Source of the DNA: Richelia intracellularis HH01
GTDB taxonomy: Bacteria; Cyanobacteriota; Cyanobacteriia; Cyanobacteriales; Nostocaceae
Assembly: GCF_000350105.1 (NCBI RefSeq)
Contig: NZ_CAIY01000085.1
Location: 62,001-126,000 of the forward strand
Length of the DNA stretch: 64,000 bases
Reading direction: 5' to 3'
Part shown: piece after piece, positions 2,372 through 56,842 of the stretch
Layout of the letters: every line of letters begins with the position of its first letter
Position numbering within the stretch: the stretch's first letter is position 1
Position numbers and translations under genes: made by a program
The notes under the pieces: generated by a model
Database searches by the model: none
Seen by the model: the letters and a program-made list of their open reading frames with translations, nothing else
Told to the model about the DNA's origin: nothing

Positions 2372-2870
2372 AAATTAGCATAACTCTAAACTGCCATTAT
2401 TTAAGAAGTCAGTATCTGGAGAATGCAGGCAATATTCCTTGCTTATATATAAATTGACTTCCGAACATTCTATACCCAATACCAATGACTTGGGAAGAAA
2501 ATTTCATCGACTAGGAAAATTATTGTAGTGAAAAATATACTGTTTTTTAGGGTGCTAAAGTGTAATTAATTAACAATTTAAGTAACTAATATACTGGTAT
2601 TGATGCCAAATATAGTGACTGCACTAACTATAAGGGAAATAAATTGAAGAGTTAAATAATATCAGTATTTCTTGTTTAGTAAAAGTACTAGAGGACTATA
2701 TTATTAGGATTTGAAAGGTATTTTTTTGAGACTTCGTTTTCAAAAAATCAATGTTATTTATATAACCAAAAGTAAGTTAGCCTAAGAGGCATATTTCTTA
2801 TATGCCTTCCGGAAGAATATCCCGGAGTAGACACTACTAAGACTCACAATTGTTCCCTGGTAAATGTACT
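2372..2870. other. Divergent promoter region upstream of dnaE
   Basis: Non-coding spacer between the divergent DUF4079 and dnaE genes. It must hold both promoters, though I could not assign -10/-35 boxes reliably in such AT-rich DNA. A small hairpin with 8-bp arms (2787-2794 and 2100 bases short of nothing else notable; right arm 2800-2807) lies about 65 bp before the dnaE ATG, in the likely 5' leader. Confidence 0.4.
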
Positions 2871-5501
2871 ATGTCCTTCGTTCCTCTACATGTTCACAGT
2901 GACTACAGTTTATTAGATGGTGCCAGTCAATTGCCAAATTTAGTTGATAGGGCTATTGAATTAGGTATGGGTGCGATAGCCCTTACAGATCATGGTGTTA
3001 TGTATGGTGCAGTTGAGTTAATCAAAATTTGCCGCAGCAAAAATGTTAAGGCAATTATTGGTAACGAAATGTATATTATTAATGGTGATATTACTAAACA
3101 AGAACGTCGTCCTCGTTATCACCAGATTGTCCTAGCAAAAAATAACCAAGGTTATAAGAATTTAGTCAAATTAACTACTACTTCTCAGCTCAAAGGAGTA
3201 CAAGGTAAAGGTATTTTTTCCCGTCCTTGTATTAACAAAGAATTATTGAAAGAATATCATGAACATTTGATTGTTACCAGTGCTTGTTTGGGTGGAGAAA
3301 TACCCCAGGCAATTCTCAGTGGGAGGGTGGATGCAGCTATAAAAGTTGCTAAATGGTATCAGAAAGTTTTTGGTAATGATTTTTATTTAGAAATTCAGGA
3401 TCATGGTTCCCAAGAAGACCGAATTGTTAATGTCGAAATAGTTAAAATCTCTAAGGAATTAGGAATTAAATTGATTGCAACTAACGATTCTCACTATGTA
3501 TCTTGTTTTGATGTTGAAGCACATGATGCTTTGTTATGTATTCAAACAGGGAAATTAATTGTAGAAGATAAAAGAATGCGTTATAGCGGAACAGAATACC
3601 TGAAATCTGCTGATGAGATGAAGTTATTATTTCGGGATCACTTACCTGATGATGTTATTGAAGAGGCTATTCATACAACCTTAGAAGTAGCAGATAAAAT
3701 TGAACCATATAATATTTTAGGAGAGCCAAGAATACCTAATTTTCCAATACCTCCTGGACATACTGCTGATACTTACCTAGAAAAAATCAGTTGGCAGGGA
3801 CTTTTGGAAAAGATGAATTATGAATCCATGAATGAGGTCGATCCAGCCTACAAGGAAAGACTAGAATATGAATTGAAAATGATTCAGAGAATGGGTTTTT
3901 CTACATACTTTTTAGTTGTATGGGACTATATAAAATTTGCTAGGGACAATGATATTCCCGTGGGTCCTGGAAGAGGTTCTGCTGCCGGTTCTTTAGTTGC
4001 TTACTGTATGGGTATTACTAATATAGATCCCGTACACCATGGATTACTTTTTGAAAGATTTCTTAATCCCGAGCGAAAATCAATGCCAGATATTGATACG
4101 GATTTTTGTATTGAAAAACGGGATATAGTCATTGACTATGTAAATAAACAGTATGGAGAAGATAAGGTAGCACAAATTATCACTTTTAATCGCATGACAT
4201 CTAAAGCAGTATTAAAAGATGTTGCGAGGGTATTAAATATTTCCTATGCAGAATCAGACAAAATGGCGAAAATGATTCCTGTATCTAGGGGTAAGCCAGC
4301 CAAATTAAAGGTGATGATTTCTGAACAGACCCCAGAGCCAGAATTTAAGCAAAGATATGAAAATAATCCTAATATAAGACGTTGGGTTGATATGGCAATT
4401 AGAATTGAGGGAACCAATAAAACTTTTGGTGTTCATGCTGCGGGAGTGGTAATTTCTGCGGAGCCTTTAGACGAAATAGTTCCTTTACAAAGGAATAATG
4501 ATGGTTCTGTAATTACCCAATACTATATGGAAGATTTAGATTCCTTAGGATTATTAAAAATGGACTTTCTAGGATTACGAAATCTGACTATGATCCAGAA
4601 AGCTATTGATTTAATAGAAGAAAATCATGGTTTTAAAATTGATCCATATAAAATTACATCTCAAGAGAGAAAATCACAGGAAACACTAGCAAAAGGCAAA
4701 TATTCTCAATTACCTAAAGATGTAAAGAAAACATTTGACTTATTGGAATCAGGAGAATTAGAAGGGGTATTTCAGTTGGAGTCCTCAGGGATGAAGCAGA
4801 TTGTCCGGGATTTAAAGCCTTCTAATATTGAAGATATATCTTCAATATTAGCATTGTACAGACCAGGACCATTAGATGCAGGATTAATTCCTAAGTTTAT
4901 TAACCGCAAGCATGGTAAAGAAGAAATTTCCTATGACGATCATGTGCTAGAGCCAATTTTAGATGAAACATATGGGATTATGGTCTATCAAGAACAAATT
5001 ATGAGAATTGCCCAAGATATGGCTGGGTATTCACTAGGACAAGCTGATTTGCTCCGTAGAGCAATGGGTAAAAAGAAAGTTGCAGAAATGCAAAAGCAGC
5101 GAGAAAAGTTTATTGATGGTTCGGCAAAAAATGGGGTTGATAAAACAACAGCAGAGAATTTATTCGGGCAAATGCTGAAGTTTGCTGAGTATTGTTTAAG
5201 CTATGACACTCAAATATTAACAGTAGAGCATGGCCCAATGTCTATTGGGGAAATTGTGGAAAAATGTCTTGAATGTCATGTATATACTGTGAATAAGAAT
5301 GGAAATATATGCATTCAAACAATTACTCAATGGCATTTCCGGGGGGAACAAGAAATTTTTGAGTATGAGCTAGAGGATGGTTCCTTTATCCAGGCAACAA
5401 AAGACCATAAGTTTATGACTACAACAGGAGAGATGTTACCAATTCATGAAATATTTACTAATGGATTAGAAATTTTACAATTGAGTAAGTCTCTATTATA
5501 A
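2871..5501 (+). CDS. DNA polymerase III alpha subunit, N-part, with N-half of split DnaE intein
   Basis: This is the first part of the replicative polymerase catalytic subunit, 876 residues. The N-terminal PHP domain starts with [12 protein letters not shown] (residues 7-18). The polymerase core carries the acidic catalytic motif PDIDTDF and the [10 protein letters not shown] loop. At residue 775 (base 5193) the polymerase sequence stops after FAEY and the N-terminal intein half begins with the catalytic cysteine in [10 protein letters not shown]. The TKDHKF block B motif follows, and the protein ends 102 residues later, the length of the Nostoc-type DnaE intein N-fragment. In cyanobacteria the rest of DnaE with the intein C-half is encoded at a distant locus, and trans-splicing joins the two. 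No C-part is present here. I prefer the ATG at 2871 to an in-frame TTG at 2850, because known DnaE proteins begin MSFVPLH. Confidence 0.97.
5193..5498 (+). other. DnaE split intein, N-terminal half (102 aa)
   Basis: Coding segment for the intein-N part of the dnaE product. Its first residue is the nucleophilic Cys1 (TGT at 5193-5195), preceded by the extein residues A-E-Y, the standard junction of cyanobacterial DnaE inteins. Block A ([10 protein letters not shown]) and block B (ATKDHKFMT, with the TxxH motif) are intact, so it should be splicing-competent with its partner. Compared with the well-known Nostoc punctiforme version there are many surface substitutions, but the length is the same. 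Confidence 0.95.
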
Positions 5502-7594: not shown

Positions 7595-8033
7595 AGGCCA
7601 GTAAGTAAATCATGTTGGTCAAATCACGGACTTTTTTGTATTGTATTTGCGAAGAAGTCTGTGACTATTATGAATAATAGTCACAGCAGTAATTATATTG
7701 CTCCCCAGTATTATTAATATATATCTCTGCCAAAAATTAAGACACTCACACTATTGAAATCAGTCTGAAAAAAGTATATTTTTATACAAACCAGTGAAGT
7801 CAATTAAAACATGTTATGCCTCTGTACTGGATTCTTTAAGTCCATATTTGAACCTGGGTTATTCGTACTAATGGATGAATTTGACTTTATGACTAATTTA
7901 TTGTTAGTAGCAAAAATTAACATGTTTAAAAGCTCATGCTATTTTCCACAGGTATCCGCGCTTTGGTAGACTTGAAAACTGAAATGACTATCTAGACAAA
8001 GACGCAAGTTTAGGAATTTAGAAGGCAGACTAA
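7595..8033. other. Intergenic region with perfect 13-bp inverted repeat
   Basis: Non-coding spacer between the ChuX-like gene and glpX. A perfect 13-bp inverted repeat with a two-base loop lies at 7659-7686, about 65 bp after the ChuX-like stop codon. It has no T-run after it, so it would be a non-canonical terminator or mRNA-end hairpin. The rest probably contains the glpX promoter, but I could not place it. Confidence 0.5.
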
Positions 8034-23093: not shown

Positions 23094-24090
23094 AACACAC
23101 ACACAAAAATTAGATCCGCAATCAGAATATCAATATTCTGATTTGCTTTACCATCGAGTAAATACGGTATTTTTTCCATAGAAGTATATTAAAATGAGTA
23201 TTTTTAACCAAGTTGTCGTGAGTTTCAGTCATTATATTGTAACTTTTAAGGTTTTCAGTTTCTATATCTACTAGCTATTTATAACTTATTCGGGAGTCAA
23301 AAGAATACATTAAATCCTCTGTGGGATTGGTAGTAAACTTTATATAATTAATTTTTCTTACTGCTAAACTGTTATTTGCAGTTGGTAATTAAAATTTCAC
23401 TACCACACTTTATAAATATTCTTATACTGATTTAAAGTTTTCTATTATATCAATAACTAGTGACCTATTCGAAACTTTGGGTTAATAACAAATTCAACGT
23501 ATATATGTTTATAAAAGAGCTCATCGGAATTTCAATCACACTTGAATTCTTAAGAAGATTTTACTATTGATAAATAAAAGTTGTTTACAGTTAACAAATA
23601 ATAATTCAAAAACTATTCTAGTCGCCTCATTATGATTTATATAATATAAAGATACAAATAATCTCTGAATATTTTGGACAATAAATCATCTTCATCAACC
23701 AATTGCATATACCTATATTCTATAAACCAAATAAGCAAAAATTAACCTATATTATATTCTATTTTATCAAAAGTATAGAATTATTAGGTTTTCCCAGTTC
23801 TGAGACTAATTGGATCATTAAATAATAAAAGTTAATTGCCTATTATATAAAATTTGTTATTTTGAAATCACAATCCACTTGGATGCTTTTTAATTCATTT
23901 TCTTTTAAGAAACTAATATTTATTACTTATCTACCTTCATTATTGATTAATAGTAGGATTCTTTTTTTATAAAAAAATGATTATTTTAAGGATTAATTGA
24001 AAAATAGCATTCATAATTAAATATATAGTCTTTCTAGCTATTTTTTCTATGTTTGTGAAAATACTAAAATTTCCCAAGTTTATATCTAAG

Positions 24091-24134
24091 TATTAAATCT
24101 CACACATATACATGTATATGTGTGAGATTTAATA
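24091..24134. repeat. Perfect 44-bp palindrome upstream of trhO
   Basis: The 22-base arms 24091-24112 and 24113-24134 are perfect reverse complements without a spacer, centred on CATG. It ends 50 to 80 bp before the candidate trhO start codons. Confidence 0.95.
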
Positions 24135-24214
24135 TATTTGCATGAACTTCCATAATTATTACTCTTACAATTCAAGTAAGCTATATGGGGAGATATCAAA
24201 AAATCTATAAGCTT

Positions 24215-24958
24215 ATGAAAAACAAAGTTGCTACATTTTATAAATTTGTCAGATTGAATAATATTGTTGACCAGCAACCAGTTTTACTATCCTATTGTCA
24301 AACCCAGGGAATTAAAGGAACTATTCTTTTAGCACCAGAAGGAATTAATGGCACAATTGCCGGTACGCCTGAAGCAATCACCTCTGTTTTGTCTTATCTT
24401 CGTAGCGATCCACTATTGGTAGACCTAGAACATAAAGAATCTTATGTGGACATAATACCATTTATTCGGATAAAAGTACGTTTAAAAAGGGAAATAGTCA
24501 CTATTGGCCTACCAGAAGTAGATCCTAATAAAGAGGTAGGAACCTATGTAAATCCCCAGGATTGGAATAACATTCTTCAAAACCCAGAAGTTACAGTAAT
24601 TGACACACGTAATAACTATGAAGTTGGTATTGGCTCCTTTAAAAGAGCTATAAACCCTCACATAAATTCTTTTCGTGAATTTCCAGAATATGTTGGGCAA
24701 AATTTAGATCCCAAAGATCATAAAAAGGTAGCTTTGTTTTGTACTGGTGGCATTCGTTGTGAAAAAGCTACATCCTTTATGTTAAGTAAAGGGTTCCCAC
24801 AGGTGTATCATCTTAGGGGAGGTATACTCAGATACCTAGGGGAAATACCATCTATAGAAAGTTTATGGTCAGGAGAATGTTTTGTTTTTGATAAACGGGT
24901 GGCTGTAAGTTATGGGTTAAAACCATATCATAATGAAATGCGTACGTCTCAATTGTGA
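24215..24958 (+). CDS. trhO: tRNA uridine(34) hydroxylase, rhodanese type (C-terminally short)
   Basis: A TrhO/YceA-family enzyme, which forms 5-hydroxyuridine at the wobble position of tRNA. The N-terminal acylphosphatase-like domain ([29 protein letters not shown]) and the rhodanese domain with catalytic cysteine in [12 protein letters not shown] are intact, and the [10 protein letters not shown] segment follows. The protein then stops after 19 further residues. As I recall, relatives continue for some 40 residues with a cysteine-rich CxxC segment. The tail here (MRTSQL) lacks it, so the gene appears truncated. A reading frame shifted by one base downstream (MPLKKNLFKLKES) may be a remnant. 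The start is either ATG 24215 or ATG 24185. Confidence 0.85.
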
Positions 24959-25101
24959 AGTGAAAGCTTTTTAACCTCAACGCCTTGATAGTGATGCCCC
25001 TTAAGAAAAACCTATTTAAATTAAAAGAAAGCATTCATTTTAGTGAGTAAAGTCAAGAAAAAACCAAGATGAATTTTAATGATTTTCCAACTGCAATAAA
25101 G

Positions 25102-25767: not shown

Positions 25768-26799
25768 AATAAATTTTGAATTTCAACTTGATTATATGTT
25801 GCTAGGTAGGCAGTAGGGAAGAACAAAATTATGGTAAGTCTAGACAGGAATGACGCTGCTAGATACCAAGTGATGAAAATAACTAAGGGTAATTATTATC
25901 AAAAATAGCCTTAGTTATTTTCATCACTTGGTATGTAATTCAAGATGTGTTTTAAGTTAATGAAAGATGTGGCTCCCAGAATACAAACTAAAACAGCATG
26001 GTAAGAATCAATTGGATATTATAATAGTGTCAAATTACTTTGTAAAATCAAAGATATACTGATAAGCATTTATTAATAGTAAAATTTCGGATTGATAAAA
26101 TACTTCTTAAATTAGATATTCTAAGTAATAATTAGCGATCAAGATTTCCATTATATTAAAAATATTGTAGCAAGTATAAATGATAATAGTTTTATTGAAA
26201 TATTTGTGTGTTTACTCAAATAAAAGTCAGTGTAATAATATTTGCCCTTTCAAGATGAATTTAATTTATCATTCATTTACCTCAGTAAAAATAAATGATT
26301 ATTGGGGAATAATAGCATTATTCCTGAAACTATAACAATGAAGCTAATCAATTCAAAACCATAATTTTTCAGTCTTCAAACTTAATAGAAATGAGCTAAA
26401 TTGAAACCACAGTCCTAATTATTTGCTATCTTCTGGACTAGAAGCCTTTGCCCACACTAGAATAATTTATATCCAGAAAGAAACCTAATAAAATTTAGGC
26501 TCTCCGATTATTTACTTATTTTATTTCTTCCTCTTGCCCCAATTGCACATAACATTGTATTTTCGATAAAGATAAAATCACAAGTGGTTGGTTAAATATT
26601 AAGTGGCAGATATTCTAGATGGTATCAGTTGAAAAAATGGGGTCAGTAAAACTACTATATGTAGCTATGGATTTAACTGCAAAAATTTGCTTAATCAAAT
26701 AGTTAGTCATTCCCAAAAAAGGTCTTTCTAATTTGATTTTAAGAGGAAGCATAAGCTCAAAAGTTTATACCAAAAAAAACAGATAAATTTAGGATCAAA
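25768..26799. other. 1.0-kb non-coding stretch
   Basis: Separates the divergent O-methyltransferase and coiled-coil genes. The only notable structure is the long inverted repeat at 25863-25934, listed separately. An 8-bp hairpin lies at 26306-26324. No gene seen. Confidence 0.5.
25863..25934. repeat. Perfect 26-bp inverted repeat with 20-base loop
   Basis: The arms 25863-25888 and 25909-25934 are perfect reverse complements around a 20-base spacer. There is no T-run directly after either arm, so it is not a canonical terminator. Its compact 72-bp form is compatible with a very small non-autonomous element or with a regulatory hairpin. Confidence 0.95.
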
Positions 26800-41592: not shown

Positions 41593-42404
41593 TTTTGAGA
41601 TTGTCTATATTATTATGTATATTATAAATACTAGAAACAAATTAAACTCACGACTGTATAAATTACAAGCAATTTATGTAAATGATAAGAGTAATTACTT
41701 CTCAAAATTTCCCCTTTAGTTATTTCAATATATCAAGTTAAAAGCTAAGAAACTTAGAGTTAAATTTTGAATTTTTATTGAGAAACTAGAGATGATAAAA
41801 AACTAAAAATCATAAAAATGTATATATGCTAAAAAATTGTTGTTACAAGCAGTTTTGTAATAATAATCAACTAATATAAATGTAATTTTACCCCTTATCC
41901 TCAATATATTATTACTATGTAATTTAGTATGAAGGTTTTGCTCTTAGTAATTATTCTATAAATTTATTTTGTGCTCTAATTATTACAAATGTAAAATTCG
42001 TGTGATTATAATAAGGAAGACTACATTAGTGTCTTAATTAAGAATATAATACATATTGGTAGCTCAAAATATAATTTTAGACAGGTAAAAATAATAAAAA
42101 TTGATTTCTTTTAACTTGTAATTTGAACTATTAAAAATAAAAAATAAGAAAAATTATTGAGTTAATTCTAAGCAGTTAAGATAGAATGATTTCAGTTTGT
42201 ATTGTTACTCAGTTCAATTCCTAATAGTAAGGAATTCATAGGTTGTTGAAAATAATTATCCAAGGTGGCAGAAAAAAATTTACAAAGTCATGATTGGTTC
42301 TTGGATCTTTAGGTATTCCCTCTTCAATATTTATTGAAGAGGGAATACCAATCTGATAGGCTTTTCTCAAGGTAATAACCACGACCATAACCTAATTACA
42401 CAAT
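41593..42404. other. 0.8-kb non-coding stretch
   Basis: AT-rich spacer between the helicase and the YgfZ-like gene. It contains the 18-bp hairpin at 42312-42349 and nothing else that I can support. Confidence 0.5.
42312..42349. repeat. Perfect 18-bp hairpin with two-base loop
   Basis: Arms 42312-42329 and 42332-42349 are perfect reverse complements. The hairpin lies 55 bp upstream of the YgfZ-like start codon, so it would form in the leader of that mRNA if transcription starts before it, or else terminate upstream transcripts. Confidence 0.95.
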
Positions 42405-43951: not shown

Positions 43952-44000
43952 ATCAACAAAACTTATTGTATTAATCATTAATACAATAAGTTTTGTTGAT
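43952..44000. repeat. Perfect 23-bp hairpin with three-base loop
   Basis: Arms 43952-43974 and 43978-44000 are perfect reverse complements. No intact gene lies within 500 bp on either side. Confidence 0.95.
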
Positions 44001-54791: not shown

Positions 54792-55640
54792 CTATAATTA
54801 TTCATATAATATTGGAAATACCTATATTCTTATATGTAATTATAACCTGATTGCATTTAATATTAATAATAGTTTGTCTAAATATACCTATTATAACTGC
54901 AAATAAAAGTAATTTTTATTGTTAATTATAATAAATATGCCAATCATCATATTTTAAGCTAGATTAGCTTAATACTGAATAGTATCTTTTATACAGAAAT
55001 TACAAATTGGTATCTCTGAGTTTAAAGTTTTATCCAATCGATCAAGTCAAATCCAAATTTTTCTTGGACTTCTTATTTATTTTTCCAAGTTTTGTTTCGG
55101 TACATTTTCTATTCTATTTATCCTTGCTATTTATCCGTGCCTTTTTTATTATTTCCCCTAATTATATTTATTTATGATGATGTTTGATCCCCTGAAATAT
55201 TCATTATATTGAGTTTATTTATTTTCTCTTGAAGTTTAAGCTACTACTCTCTTGTTTGACTAGTATATCGTTTTTTTGTATCTAATAATTATCCCTAAAA
55301 ACTCATATTTTATTAACTATTTTAATATTTTATCGTTTATTTATAGAAGCAATTTTCAGATAAAATTGTAATCGACTCTTGAGTGCATTACTACTATTAG
55401 CACTTTACTGTGTAATTGATTATGAAGTTTTATCTTCCAGCCTAAACCCGAAAAGTATTTTCAAAAGTTTAAATTAATATTGATGATATAGAAGATTATT
55501 TTCCGATAAGAATTTTTTATGCTTATAAACTATTAAAAATAGTTACAAAGGAAGAAAAAAATTTTAATTCCTTGGATTGAGTTAAAAAAATATTAAGTTG
55601 AATCCTAAATAATACCATTATTAAAATAATACCTTTGTTA

Positions 55641-55670
55641 TTATCGATAGGGTGATCACCCTATCGATAA
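55641..55670. repeat. Perfect 30-bp palindrome
   Basis: Fifteen-base arms meet at TGATCA without a spacer. It is GC-richer than its surroundings and lies 100 bp upstream of the hypothetical gene at 55770, a position suited to an operator for a dimeric regulator. Confidence 0.95.
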
Positions 55671-55769
55671 CGAATAATTACAGAATCGGGTGTTAATATA
55701 AGTTGTAAAATAAGTAGTAGTCTACTGGATGTATTGCACCTCATCTTTGAGAGCAAAGGGATTTAAATT

Positions 55770-56228
55770 ATGACTAATCATCTACCTAATACTAAAATAC
55801 CGGCCCCTTGCATTGTTGATACTGGCATGGTTATTAATAAACATGATATCCAGCAATTACTAAGTGATTTAAGCCAAGTACGCTACATCTATACCCTAAA
55901 TGACCAAGTACAAAGTGAGGGAAAAGGAGATATTATTGAAGTCTTTGCACATCCTAATCGTTCTACCCTGGTTGTAAATCACACTTTGTATTTGAATATT
56001 TGTAGTTTTGATTACTTAGAACTTCATCAGTCTCCAGAGTCACAAACATGTTTTGATTTGGTGCAAGAAAGTACGCGTTTAAGCTTGATTCCTCTCTCTA
56101 ATCCCATAAAGGAATGTAGAAATAGTGGATTGAATTCTCATGCCATAGATATAATGATGGAGCGGTTTTTTTCAGCAAGATTGGATGCAGAAATAGATGA
56201 TGACACAGATGTTTCTGAGCAATTTTAA
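55770..56228 (+). CDS. Conserved cyanobacterial protein of unknown function
   Basis: A soluble 152-residue protein without signal peptide or membrane segment. Central well-ordered part: YIYTLNDQVQSEGKGDIIEVF, RSTLVVNHTLYLNICSFDYLEL. The end is acidic (AEIDDDTDVSEQF). I do not recognise a named domain. ATG start with a plausible AAAGGGA ribosome-binding site. A perfect palindrome lies 100 bp upstream. Confidence 0.7.
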   Translation: MTNHLPNTKIPAPCIVDTGMVINKHDIQQLLSDLSQVRYIYTLNDQVQSEGKGDIIEVFAHPNRSTLVVNHTLYLNICSFDYLELHQSPESQTCFDLVQESTRLSLIPLSNPIKECRNSGLNSHAIDIMMERFFSARLDAEIDDDTDVSEQF

Positions 56229-56842
56229 GGTATGTAAATCACTATGGATAGGGAAAACAATAAAGTTTGTAATGATCAATAGTATGATAATTGACGAAAA
56301 TATTCTCCCCATGTTGGTTGCCTTAAGTGCTTAATAGAGGATATAACATCATCATTTATAAGGGAATATCCATAAATTCAATATTAATAGTGTTCTAAAA
56401 CTTCAACTACTCATATAATCACTAGATTTATGGGCTTTAATGAATTTATGGATTTTACTTATTTTTTAATTAAGAAGAATAATAATAATATTTCATCCTC
56501 AAATTGTCAAGCTTATGTGGTGATTGTAAGGGAATTAAATGGTTGAGTTAATCTGTGACCATTCAGATAGTTATTATTTTGCTGGGAATAGGATGATCAA
56601 GTTTATTGCAAATCTGGGTATGCATTAATGATTTTTTTAGTAGTTATGATATTAGGAAAATCATTGTAATTAATCCAGTTACAAATTCAGTATTCACATC
56701 ATAAACTGTGTATTTCATTTCTTTAAGTGCAGTTTTATAACTGTAGTAAATTATATTAGGTATTTCCATAAACATACTGCGGGCTATGCACCCGCAGTAT
56801 GTTTGTGATTATTTAGATTTGGCAATCCTTAAAATCAATAAT
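56229..56842. other. Spacer between hypothetical gene and ndhD1
   Basis: About 610 bp between convergent genes. It contains the ndhD1 terminator (56767-56807) and nothing else that I can support. Confidence 0.5.
56767..56807 (-). terminator. Strong hairpin terminator of ndhD1
   Basis: GC-rich inverted repeat, 17-base arms (56767-56783 and 56791-56807, one G-T pair) with a seven-base loop, 36 bp beyond the ndhD1 stop on the minus strand. Confidence 0.8.

What the first reader, a model, noticed from the sequence alone, without database searches (positions are those of the whole stretch)
24091..24134. Perfect 44-bp palindrome before trhO
A spacerless 2 x 22-base palindrome is far beyond chance and would be expected to be unstable in DNA. 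It is located where the trhO promoter or leader should be. Its perfection suggests selection, recent formation, or an assembly artefact.
Basis: seen in the sequence. Interest (0 to 1): 0.5.

Follow-up and report, generated by a model that had tools for sequence, protein, structure and literature searches.

The report
Template-switch palindrome scars in Richelia
The perfect 44-base palindrome is real, but it is one of many unrelated perfect palindromes scattered through the decaying non-coding DNA of this diatom-dwelling cyanobacterium, most likely scars left when replication briefly copied the wrong strand rather than a control element of the neighbouring gene.

Summary
The 22+22-bp palindrome at 24091-24134 is exact, spacerless and far beyond chance. 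It has no second copy in its genome.

It is not special to trhO. A 558-kb sample of the same 3.24-Mb genome holds 58 perfect palindromes (arms >=15, spacer <=8), with no sequence match between them. Arms >=18 number 48 in 327 kb of non-coding DNA of two Richelia genomes, against 2 in 202 kb of 23 other cyanobacteria; at arms >=15 the contrast is only about threefold. They avoid ORFs (81 of 85 outside), ignore gene ends and lack T-tails.

Comparisons suggest how they arise. In two intact genes an imperfect palindrome of the relatives is perfect here, by substitutions in place. In a decayed glcD-like gene the loop is inverted relative to the relative's open gene. Both are marks of template-switch ("quasipalindrome") mutation.

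So: a known mutation type with an unusual genome-wide load in Richelia. The focal copy cannot be aligned to a relative, so its history is inferred. Loss of exonuclease VII alone does not explain the load. No reads were available.

The parts
24091..24134 (.). Focal perfect palindrome, 22-nt arms, no spacer
   Evidence: single copy in own genome
24076..24149 (.). Looser inverted repeat around the core, 37-nt arms, 81% complementary
   Evidence: 8 of 15 outer positions paired
24185..24958 (+). trhO (tRNA uridine(34) hydroxylase), 257 aa from the first ATG; second in-frame ATG at 24215
   Evidence: NCBIfam NF001133 316 bits, cut-off 170; ATGs; homologies of relatives start at residues 3-15
43952..44000 (.). 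Perfect palindrome, 24-nt arms, 1-nt spacer
   Evidence: aligned to G001 with 6 inserted bases, 14 of 24 pairs there
42312..42349 (.). Perfect palindrome, 18-nt arms, 2-nt spacer
55641..55670 (.). Perfect palindrome, 15-nt arms, no spacer, before a 152-aa ORF; aligned to G001 without indel, 7 of 15 pairs there
4822..4851 (.). Perfect palindrome, 15-nt arms, inside dnaE; the relatives hold a quasipalindrome at the same place
56770..56804 (.). Perfect inverted repeat, 14-nt arms, 7-nt spacer
7659..7686 (.). Perfect inverted repeat, 13-nt arms, 2-nt spacer
25863..25934 (.). Inverted repeat with 26-nt perfect arms, 20-nt spacer

Best explanation
The palindrome is a mutational scar. During stalled replication the nascent strand folds back, or switches to the opposite strand, at a sequence that is already partly self-complementary; one arm is copied as the reverse complement of the other, then synthesis returns to its normal template. 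The result is a perfect, sequence-unique palindrome, sometimes with its loop inverted. In Richelia such scars have piled up in relaxed, decaying non-coding DNA, about 10 per 100 kb in this genome. Supported by comparison: in-place perfecting of a quasipalindrome in dnaE and in a HAD-like gene, and loop inversion in a glcD-like pseudogene. Inferred: the replication step itself, and that the focal copy arose this way. The rough arm-length ceiling near 25 nt may reflect hairpin cleavage by SbcCD, whose SbcD subunit is present; this too is inference.
For: Class, not one site: 58 perfect palindromes (arms >=15, spacer <=8) in 558 kb; five shuffles of the window and of the first 268 kb sampled gave 0.0. 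Unique sequences: among 85 queries with 200-nt flanks, two weak non-self matches in the own-genome sample, both in flanks. Arms >=18: 48 in 327 kb non-coding of two Richelia genomes against 2 in 202 kb of 23 other genomes (p about 3e-8). Avoid ORFs: 81 of 85 outside, 48% of the sample being non-coding, p 1e-21. dnaE: 24 of 24 relatives hold only 7-12 of the 15 pairs, this genome 15; the four right-arm differences from the same-genus copy are all synonymous and pair-forming, while the left arm is identical. HAD-like gene: 23 of 23 loci of relatives hold 5-12 of 19 pairs, this genome 19; its right-arm codons AGC and ACG occur in none of the 23. glcD-like pseudogene: the 14-nt loop matches the reverse complement of the relative's loop at 13 positions, direct at 3. 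Histidine-kinase pseudogene: aligned without net length change; left arm 16 of 23, right arm 12 of 23 identical to the relative, and the N-box stretch of the relative is the part changed. In 9 of 10 alignable cases the palindrome carries at most 2 indel bases, in one 6. Published: E. coli mutations at quasipalindromes 'universally perfect the palindromic sequence' (PMC6357072, passages); template switches make perfect stems in one event and can invert loops (PMC8794818, abstract and passages).
Against: The focal region cannot be aligned to the relative. In the 10 alignable cases both arms are nearly as similar to the relative (125 and 111 of 179) as the flanks (mean 0.69), so wholesale overwriting of an arm is not the rule; ancestors must have been partly palindromic. 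Two of the four dnaE right-arm states (TCA, TTA) also occur in 7 and 4 of the 24 relatives, so not all are new here. Any perfect palindrome must have pair-forming differences, so their direction alone proves little. Loop inversion is seen in 1 of 4 alignable cases with a spacer of 6 or more (script for one; the other three by eye). Only 10 of 96 palindromes queried were alignable to the G001 loci fetched, and none of 25 from G001 to this genome's sample. At arms >=15 the contrast with other genomes is only about threefold (66 in 327 kb against 13 in 202 kb non-coding). Pairing just outside the arms is slightly below background as a class, which I cannot explain, while the focal copy pairs at 8 of 15 outer positions.
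Confidence: 0.72

Rival explanations
1. Selected RNA or DNA element of trhO: a leader hairpin, promoter or operator palindrome, or a terminator for upstream transcription.
For: If transcribed it would fold strongly (z -6.05). It lies 50-80 nt before a possible start codon.
Against: No terminator-like site at 23900-24300. No perfect palindrome with arms >=11 in the same-genus trhO locus. The class is not enriched near gene 5' or 3' ends. The ten Rfam matches listed at E up to 1 all lie far below their gathering scores.
Confidence: 0.08
2. Sequencing, amplification or assembly artefact: fold-back products entered the consensus.
For: Both Richelia genomes are drafts (90 and about 860 contigs). 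That symbiont cells were amplified before sequencing, and that both drafts may come from one group, is my recollection, not tested.
Against: The class appears in a second genome of the genus at similar density per non-coding base. Strong avoidance of ORFs. Fully synonymous in dnaE.
Confidence: 0.1
3. A mobile or interspersed palindromic repeat family (REP-like or MITE-like) inserted here.
For: Cyanobacteria carry such families (recalled); several of the few non-Richelia hits look like them (my reading).
Against: Palindromes share no sequence with each other in the sample. Orthologous sites align with little or no length change. Single copy.
Confidence: 0.03
4. A maintained function unrelated to neighbouring genes, such as nucleoid or cruciform sites under selection for perfect pairing.
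For: Repeats with 20 of 20 pairs are somewhat commoner than those with 19 (30 against 22).
Against: The classes with 19, 18 and 17 pairs (22, 21, 24) look like birth followed by neutral decay. In 10 aligned sites the relative holds 91 of 179 pairs, so the palindromes are not kept between the two species.
Confidence: 0.07

Closest known systems
Quasipalindrome-associated template-switch mutation in E. coli (PMC6357072, passages seen)
   Same: One arm templates the other; imperfect inverted repeats become perfect; bases are replaced in place.
   Different: There measured at an 18-bp reporter site; here tens of perfect palindromes in a sample of one genome, with arms up to 37 nt.
Template-switch origin of RNA hairpins (PMC8794818, abstract and passages seen)
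   Same: Perfect stems made in one event; loop inversion as a signature.
   Different: Described for microRNA and rRNA genes; here in non-coding DNA and pseudogenes of a bacterium.
HIP1 palindromes of cyanobacteria (PMC4390886, passages seen)
   Same: Palindromes abundant in cyanobacterial genomes.
   Different: HIP1 is one shared 8-mer, and that paper finds no highly over-represented 8-mer in Richelia HH01. Here the palindromes are long and unique.
Rho-independent terminators
   Same: Short hairpins in intergenic DNA.
   Different: No T-tract above background, AT-rich stems, no link to gene ends.

Membership tests
Template-switch (quasipalindrome) mutation | Derived sequence has perfect complementary arms | tested here: met
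Template-switch (quasipalindrome) mutation | Relatives hold an imperfect inverted repeat at the site; changed in place, without insertion (class) | tested here: met
   dnaE with 24 relatives, HAD-like gene with 23; at most 2 indel bases in 9 of 10 alignable cases
Template-switch (quasipalindrome) mutation | The same, at the focal site | tested here: inconclusive
   upstream region not alignable with the same-genus genome
Template-switch (quasipalindrome) mutation | One arm ancestral, the other rewritten | tested here: inconclusive
   in dnaE 15 and 11 of 15 identical to G001; over 10 cases 125 and 111 of 179, close to the flanks
Template-switch (quasipalindrome) mutation | Loop inversion in a subset of events | tested here: met
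   1 of 4 alignable cases with spacer of 6 or more, L044:2890-2939
Template-switch (quasipalindrome) mutation | Arises during replication, raised by loss of particular nucleases | tested here: inconclusive
   xseA not found in either Richelia, but also not in five genomes without the load; SbcD in 25 of 25
Rho-independent terminator | T-tract after the stem and position at gene 3' ends | tested here: not met
Interspersed palindromic repeat family | Copies share sequence | tested here: not met
HIP1 | Contains GCGATCGC | tested here: not met
   focal sequence

The most novel reading that the evidence does not exclude
The Richelia lineage carries a heritable palindrome-making mutator: a change in fork or nuclease functions (loss of exonuclease VII plus at least one further factor) raised template switching so far that perfect palindromes became a major mutation class during genome decay. 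The genome would be a natural record of the process, including its patch-length ceiling.
Probability: 0.33. Interest if true: 0.7.

Novelty: new variant of a known kind. Interest (0 to 1): 0.5.

Why it matters
Template-switch mutations have been measured mainly at reporter or hotspot sites (my understanding of the field). A symbiont genome with roughly 350 of their likely scars (58 in 542 kb without N, extrapolated to 3.24 Mb) would let arm length, spacer, seed and edges be measured in nature, and would show how long perfect hairpins arise without selection. It also warns that a perfect palindrome before a gene need not be regulatory.

Tried and rejected
Rejected: trhO regulation, terminators, a repeat family, HIP1. 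Loss of SbcCD as cause: SbcD found in 25 of 25 genomes; SbcC was not searched. Loss of exonuclease VII as sole cause: xseA found in 18 of 25 genomes and in neither Richelia (the own genome is only 89% complete), but the five other genomes without it hold 1 palindrome with arms >=18 in 103 kb non-coding, against 1 in 99 kb for 18 genomes with it. RecJ, RecBCD/AddAB and exonuclease I were not searched. Erosion of longer inverted repeats: no residual pairing outside the arms as a class, although the focal copy has some. Comparing 25 palindromes of the fetched same-genus loci with this genome's sample gave no alignable case. The palindrome in ccmN (L049:8926-8966) was not compared with relatives. 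Three of eight G014 stretches were all N: two were left out, the third adds nothing there.

Literature: 'Richelia' + 'palindrom' found one paper, on HIP1; 'quasipalindrome' + 'template switch' + 'exonuclease VII' none; 'perfect palindromes' + 'bacterial genomes' + 'template switching' none; 'long palindromes' + 'cyanobacteria' + 'inverted repeats' none. 'Not in print' therefore means only in these searches of open-licence papers.

Full report
Identity of the source. The window is part of contig 6 of a 3.24-Mb, 90-contig genome. The same-genus genome G001 contains a contig of 18,737 bases, the length of a contig in the record 'Richelia intracellularis WGS project CBZS' that matches the same gene. 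The size of the own genome agrees with the 3.2 Mb given for Richelia euintracellularis HH01 (PMC10299089, passages). The strain names HH01 for the window and RC01 for the CBZS record are my inference and recall.

The observation. 24091-24134 is an exact palindrome with 22-nt arms and no spacer, expected 2.9e-8 times in the window. It sits in a looser 74-nt inverted repeat and has no second copy in the genome. Upstream of it lie 1.7 kb without an ORF of 90 aa; downstream is trhO, with in-frame ATGs at 24185 and 24215.

It belongs to a class. The window has five perfect palindromes with arms >=15 and spacer <=8, and 268 kb of twenty other stretches has 28, against 0.0 in five shuffles of each. 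With further stretches the sample reached 558 kb (542 kb without N) and 58 palindromes; 85 if spacers up to 20 are allowed. Arm lengths run fairly evenly to 25 and then stop, apart from single cases of 26, 33 and 37. Inverted repeats with 20, 19, 18 and 17 of 20 pairs number 30, 22, 21 and 24, against 0 in one shuffle: the picture of steady birth and neutral decay. The palindromes share no sequence: of 85 queries with flanks, two gave a weak non-self match in the own-genome sample, both in the flanks.

Who has it. Outside ORFs and per 100 kb of non-coding DNA (arms >=15) the window's genome has 20.7 and G001 has 18.0; 18 genomes with xseA have 6 in 99 kb and five other genomes without it 7 in 103 kb (p about 4e-5 for Richelia against these 23). 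With arms >=18 the contrast is sharper: 48 in 327 kb non-coding for the two Richelia genomes (42 and 6; some of the 42 lie within ORFs) against 1 in 99 kb and 1 in 103 kb (p about 3e-8). Three further genomes of untested xseA status have none with arms >=15. Several of the non-Richelia ones look like known repeat families (my recollection). The samples of the other genomes are small, often 20 kb each, and five of the G001 stretches were taken because they match genes of the window or of another sampled stretch.

Where it lies. 81 of 85 are outside ORFs of 90 aa or more, although 48% of the sample is non-coding. Within non-coding DNA their distances to gene 3' ends and starts match random positions: for example 8 of 81 within 100 nt of a 3' end, 0.099 against 0.085. 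T-tails are no commoner than at random (5 of 85 against 0.060), and G+C equals that of the flanks within 0.03. This argues against terminators, promoters and leaders as a class. An artefact blind to genes would not be expected to avoid ORFs.

How they arise. Three ORFs hold a palindrome with arms >=15, and one more overlaps a palindrome. In dnaE (4822-4851) the 24 relatives carry an imperfect version with 7-12 of 15 pairs; here it is 15. Against the same-genus copy the left arm is identical and the right arm differs at four synonymous positions, all pair-forming. Of the four right-arm states, ATA in the later isoleucine codon is in no relative, ATA in the earlier one in 1 of 24, and TCA and TTA in 7 and 4 of 24. 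In a HAD-family hydrolase gene (L075:19410-19449; family) the 23 loci of relatives have 5-12 of 19 pairs, here 19; the codons AGC and ACG in its right arm are in none of them, and one or two left-arm changes may be new as well (one of the 24 relatives with a match got no locus). The third, in ccmN (L049:8926-8966; named), was not compared.

Pseudogenes. L076:9447-9493 lies in a histidine-kinase pseudogene with stops in all three frames of its strand, whereas G001 has an intact 489-aa gene. The alignment has no net length change: two compensating one-base gaps, none with the penalties. The left arm keeps 16 of 23 identities and the right arm 12 of 23, and the changed part is the N-box stretch of the relative; that the N-box is conserved in histidine kinases is general knowledge. 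L044:2890-2939 lies outside ORFs; G001 has an open frame of 495 codons there that reads like a glycolate-oxidase subunit (the name is recalled). Its 14-nt loop is inverted: 13 of 14 bases match the reverse complement, 3 of 14 direct. Loop inversion is a reported outcome of template switching (PMC8794818, passages). The other three alignable cases with spacers of 6 or more keep the loop's direction, judged by eye.

Numbers against. Of 96 palindromes (arms >=14, spacer <=20) compared with the fetched G001 loci, 10 could be aligned. There the arms keep 125 and 111 of 179 identities, close to the flank mean of 0.69, and the relative has 91 of 179 pairs. So typical events perfect a partly complementary sequence rather than overwrite an unrelated one. 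Pairing in the eight positions beyond arms >=18 is 0.226, below 0.286 at nearby blocks; this I cannot explain. The focal copy differs, with 8 of 15 outer positions paired. At the focal site the relative's upstream region does not align, so its own origin is inferred from its class.

Cause of the load. SbcD is present in 25 of 25 genomes searched. xseA was not found in either Richelia or in five others of the 25, but those five lack the load of long palindromes, so exonuclease VII loss is at most a contributing factor. In E. coli recB and dnaB mutants show high constitutive template switching (PMC6357072, passages); those genes were not searched here. Relaxed selection in a reduced symbiont genome explains where scars survive, but not the contrast per non-coding base with the other genomes.

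Verdict. The palindrome is most likely one scar of a known mutation mechanism that has left an unusually large number of marks in the Richelia lineage.

Noticed in passing
window 24185-24958 and 24956-25083: The trhO frame is about 40 codons shorter than that of the same-genus gene (open frame 270 against 311) and lacks its Cys-rich tail; DNA 65% identical to the relative's tail follows the stop.
   Followed up: partly
window 2850-5501: dnaE ends in an N-terminal intein segment, as in split DnaE inteins (the split reading is recalled).
   Followed up: no
G000 and G001, whole genomes: xseA (exonuclease VII large subunit) gave no match in either Richelia genome, nor in five of the other 23 genomes.
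   Followed up: partly
window 55440-55770: Non-coding stretch alignable between the two Richelia genomes upstream of a 152-aa ORF; may hold a leader RNA.
   Followed up: no
L076:16459-16527: 33-nt-arm palindrome between two genes; its left arm aligns to G001, its right arm does not, and G001 has about 380 bases there without a match.
   Followed up: partly
G000 sample, 85 palindromes: Spacer lengths of palindromes with arms >=15 are most often 0 (16 of 85) but reach 20, with no single preferred loop length.
   Followed up: no
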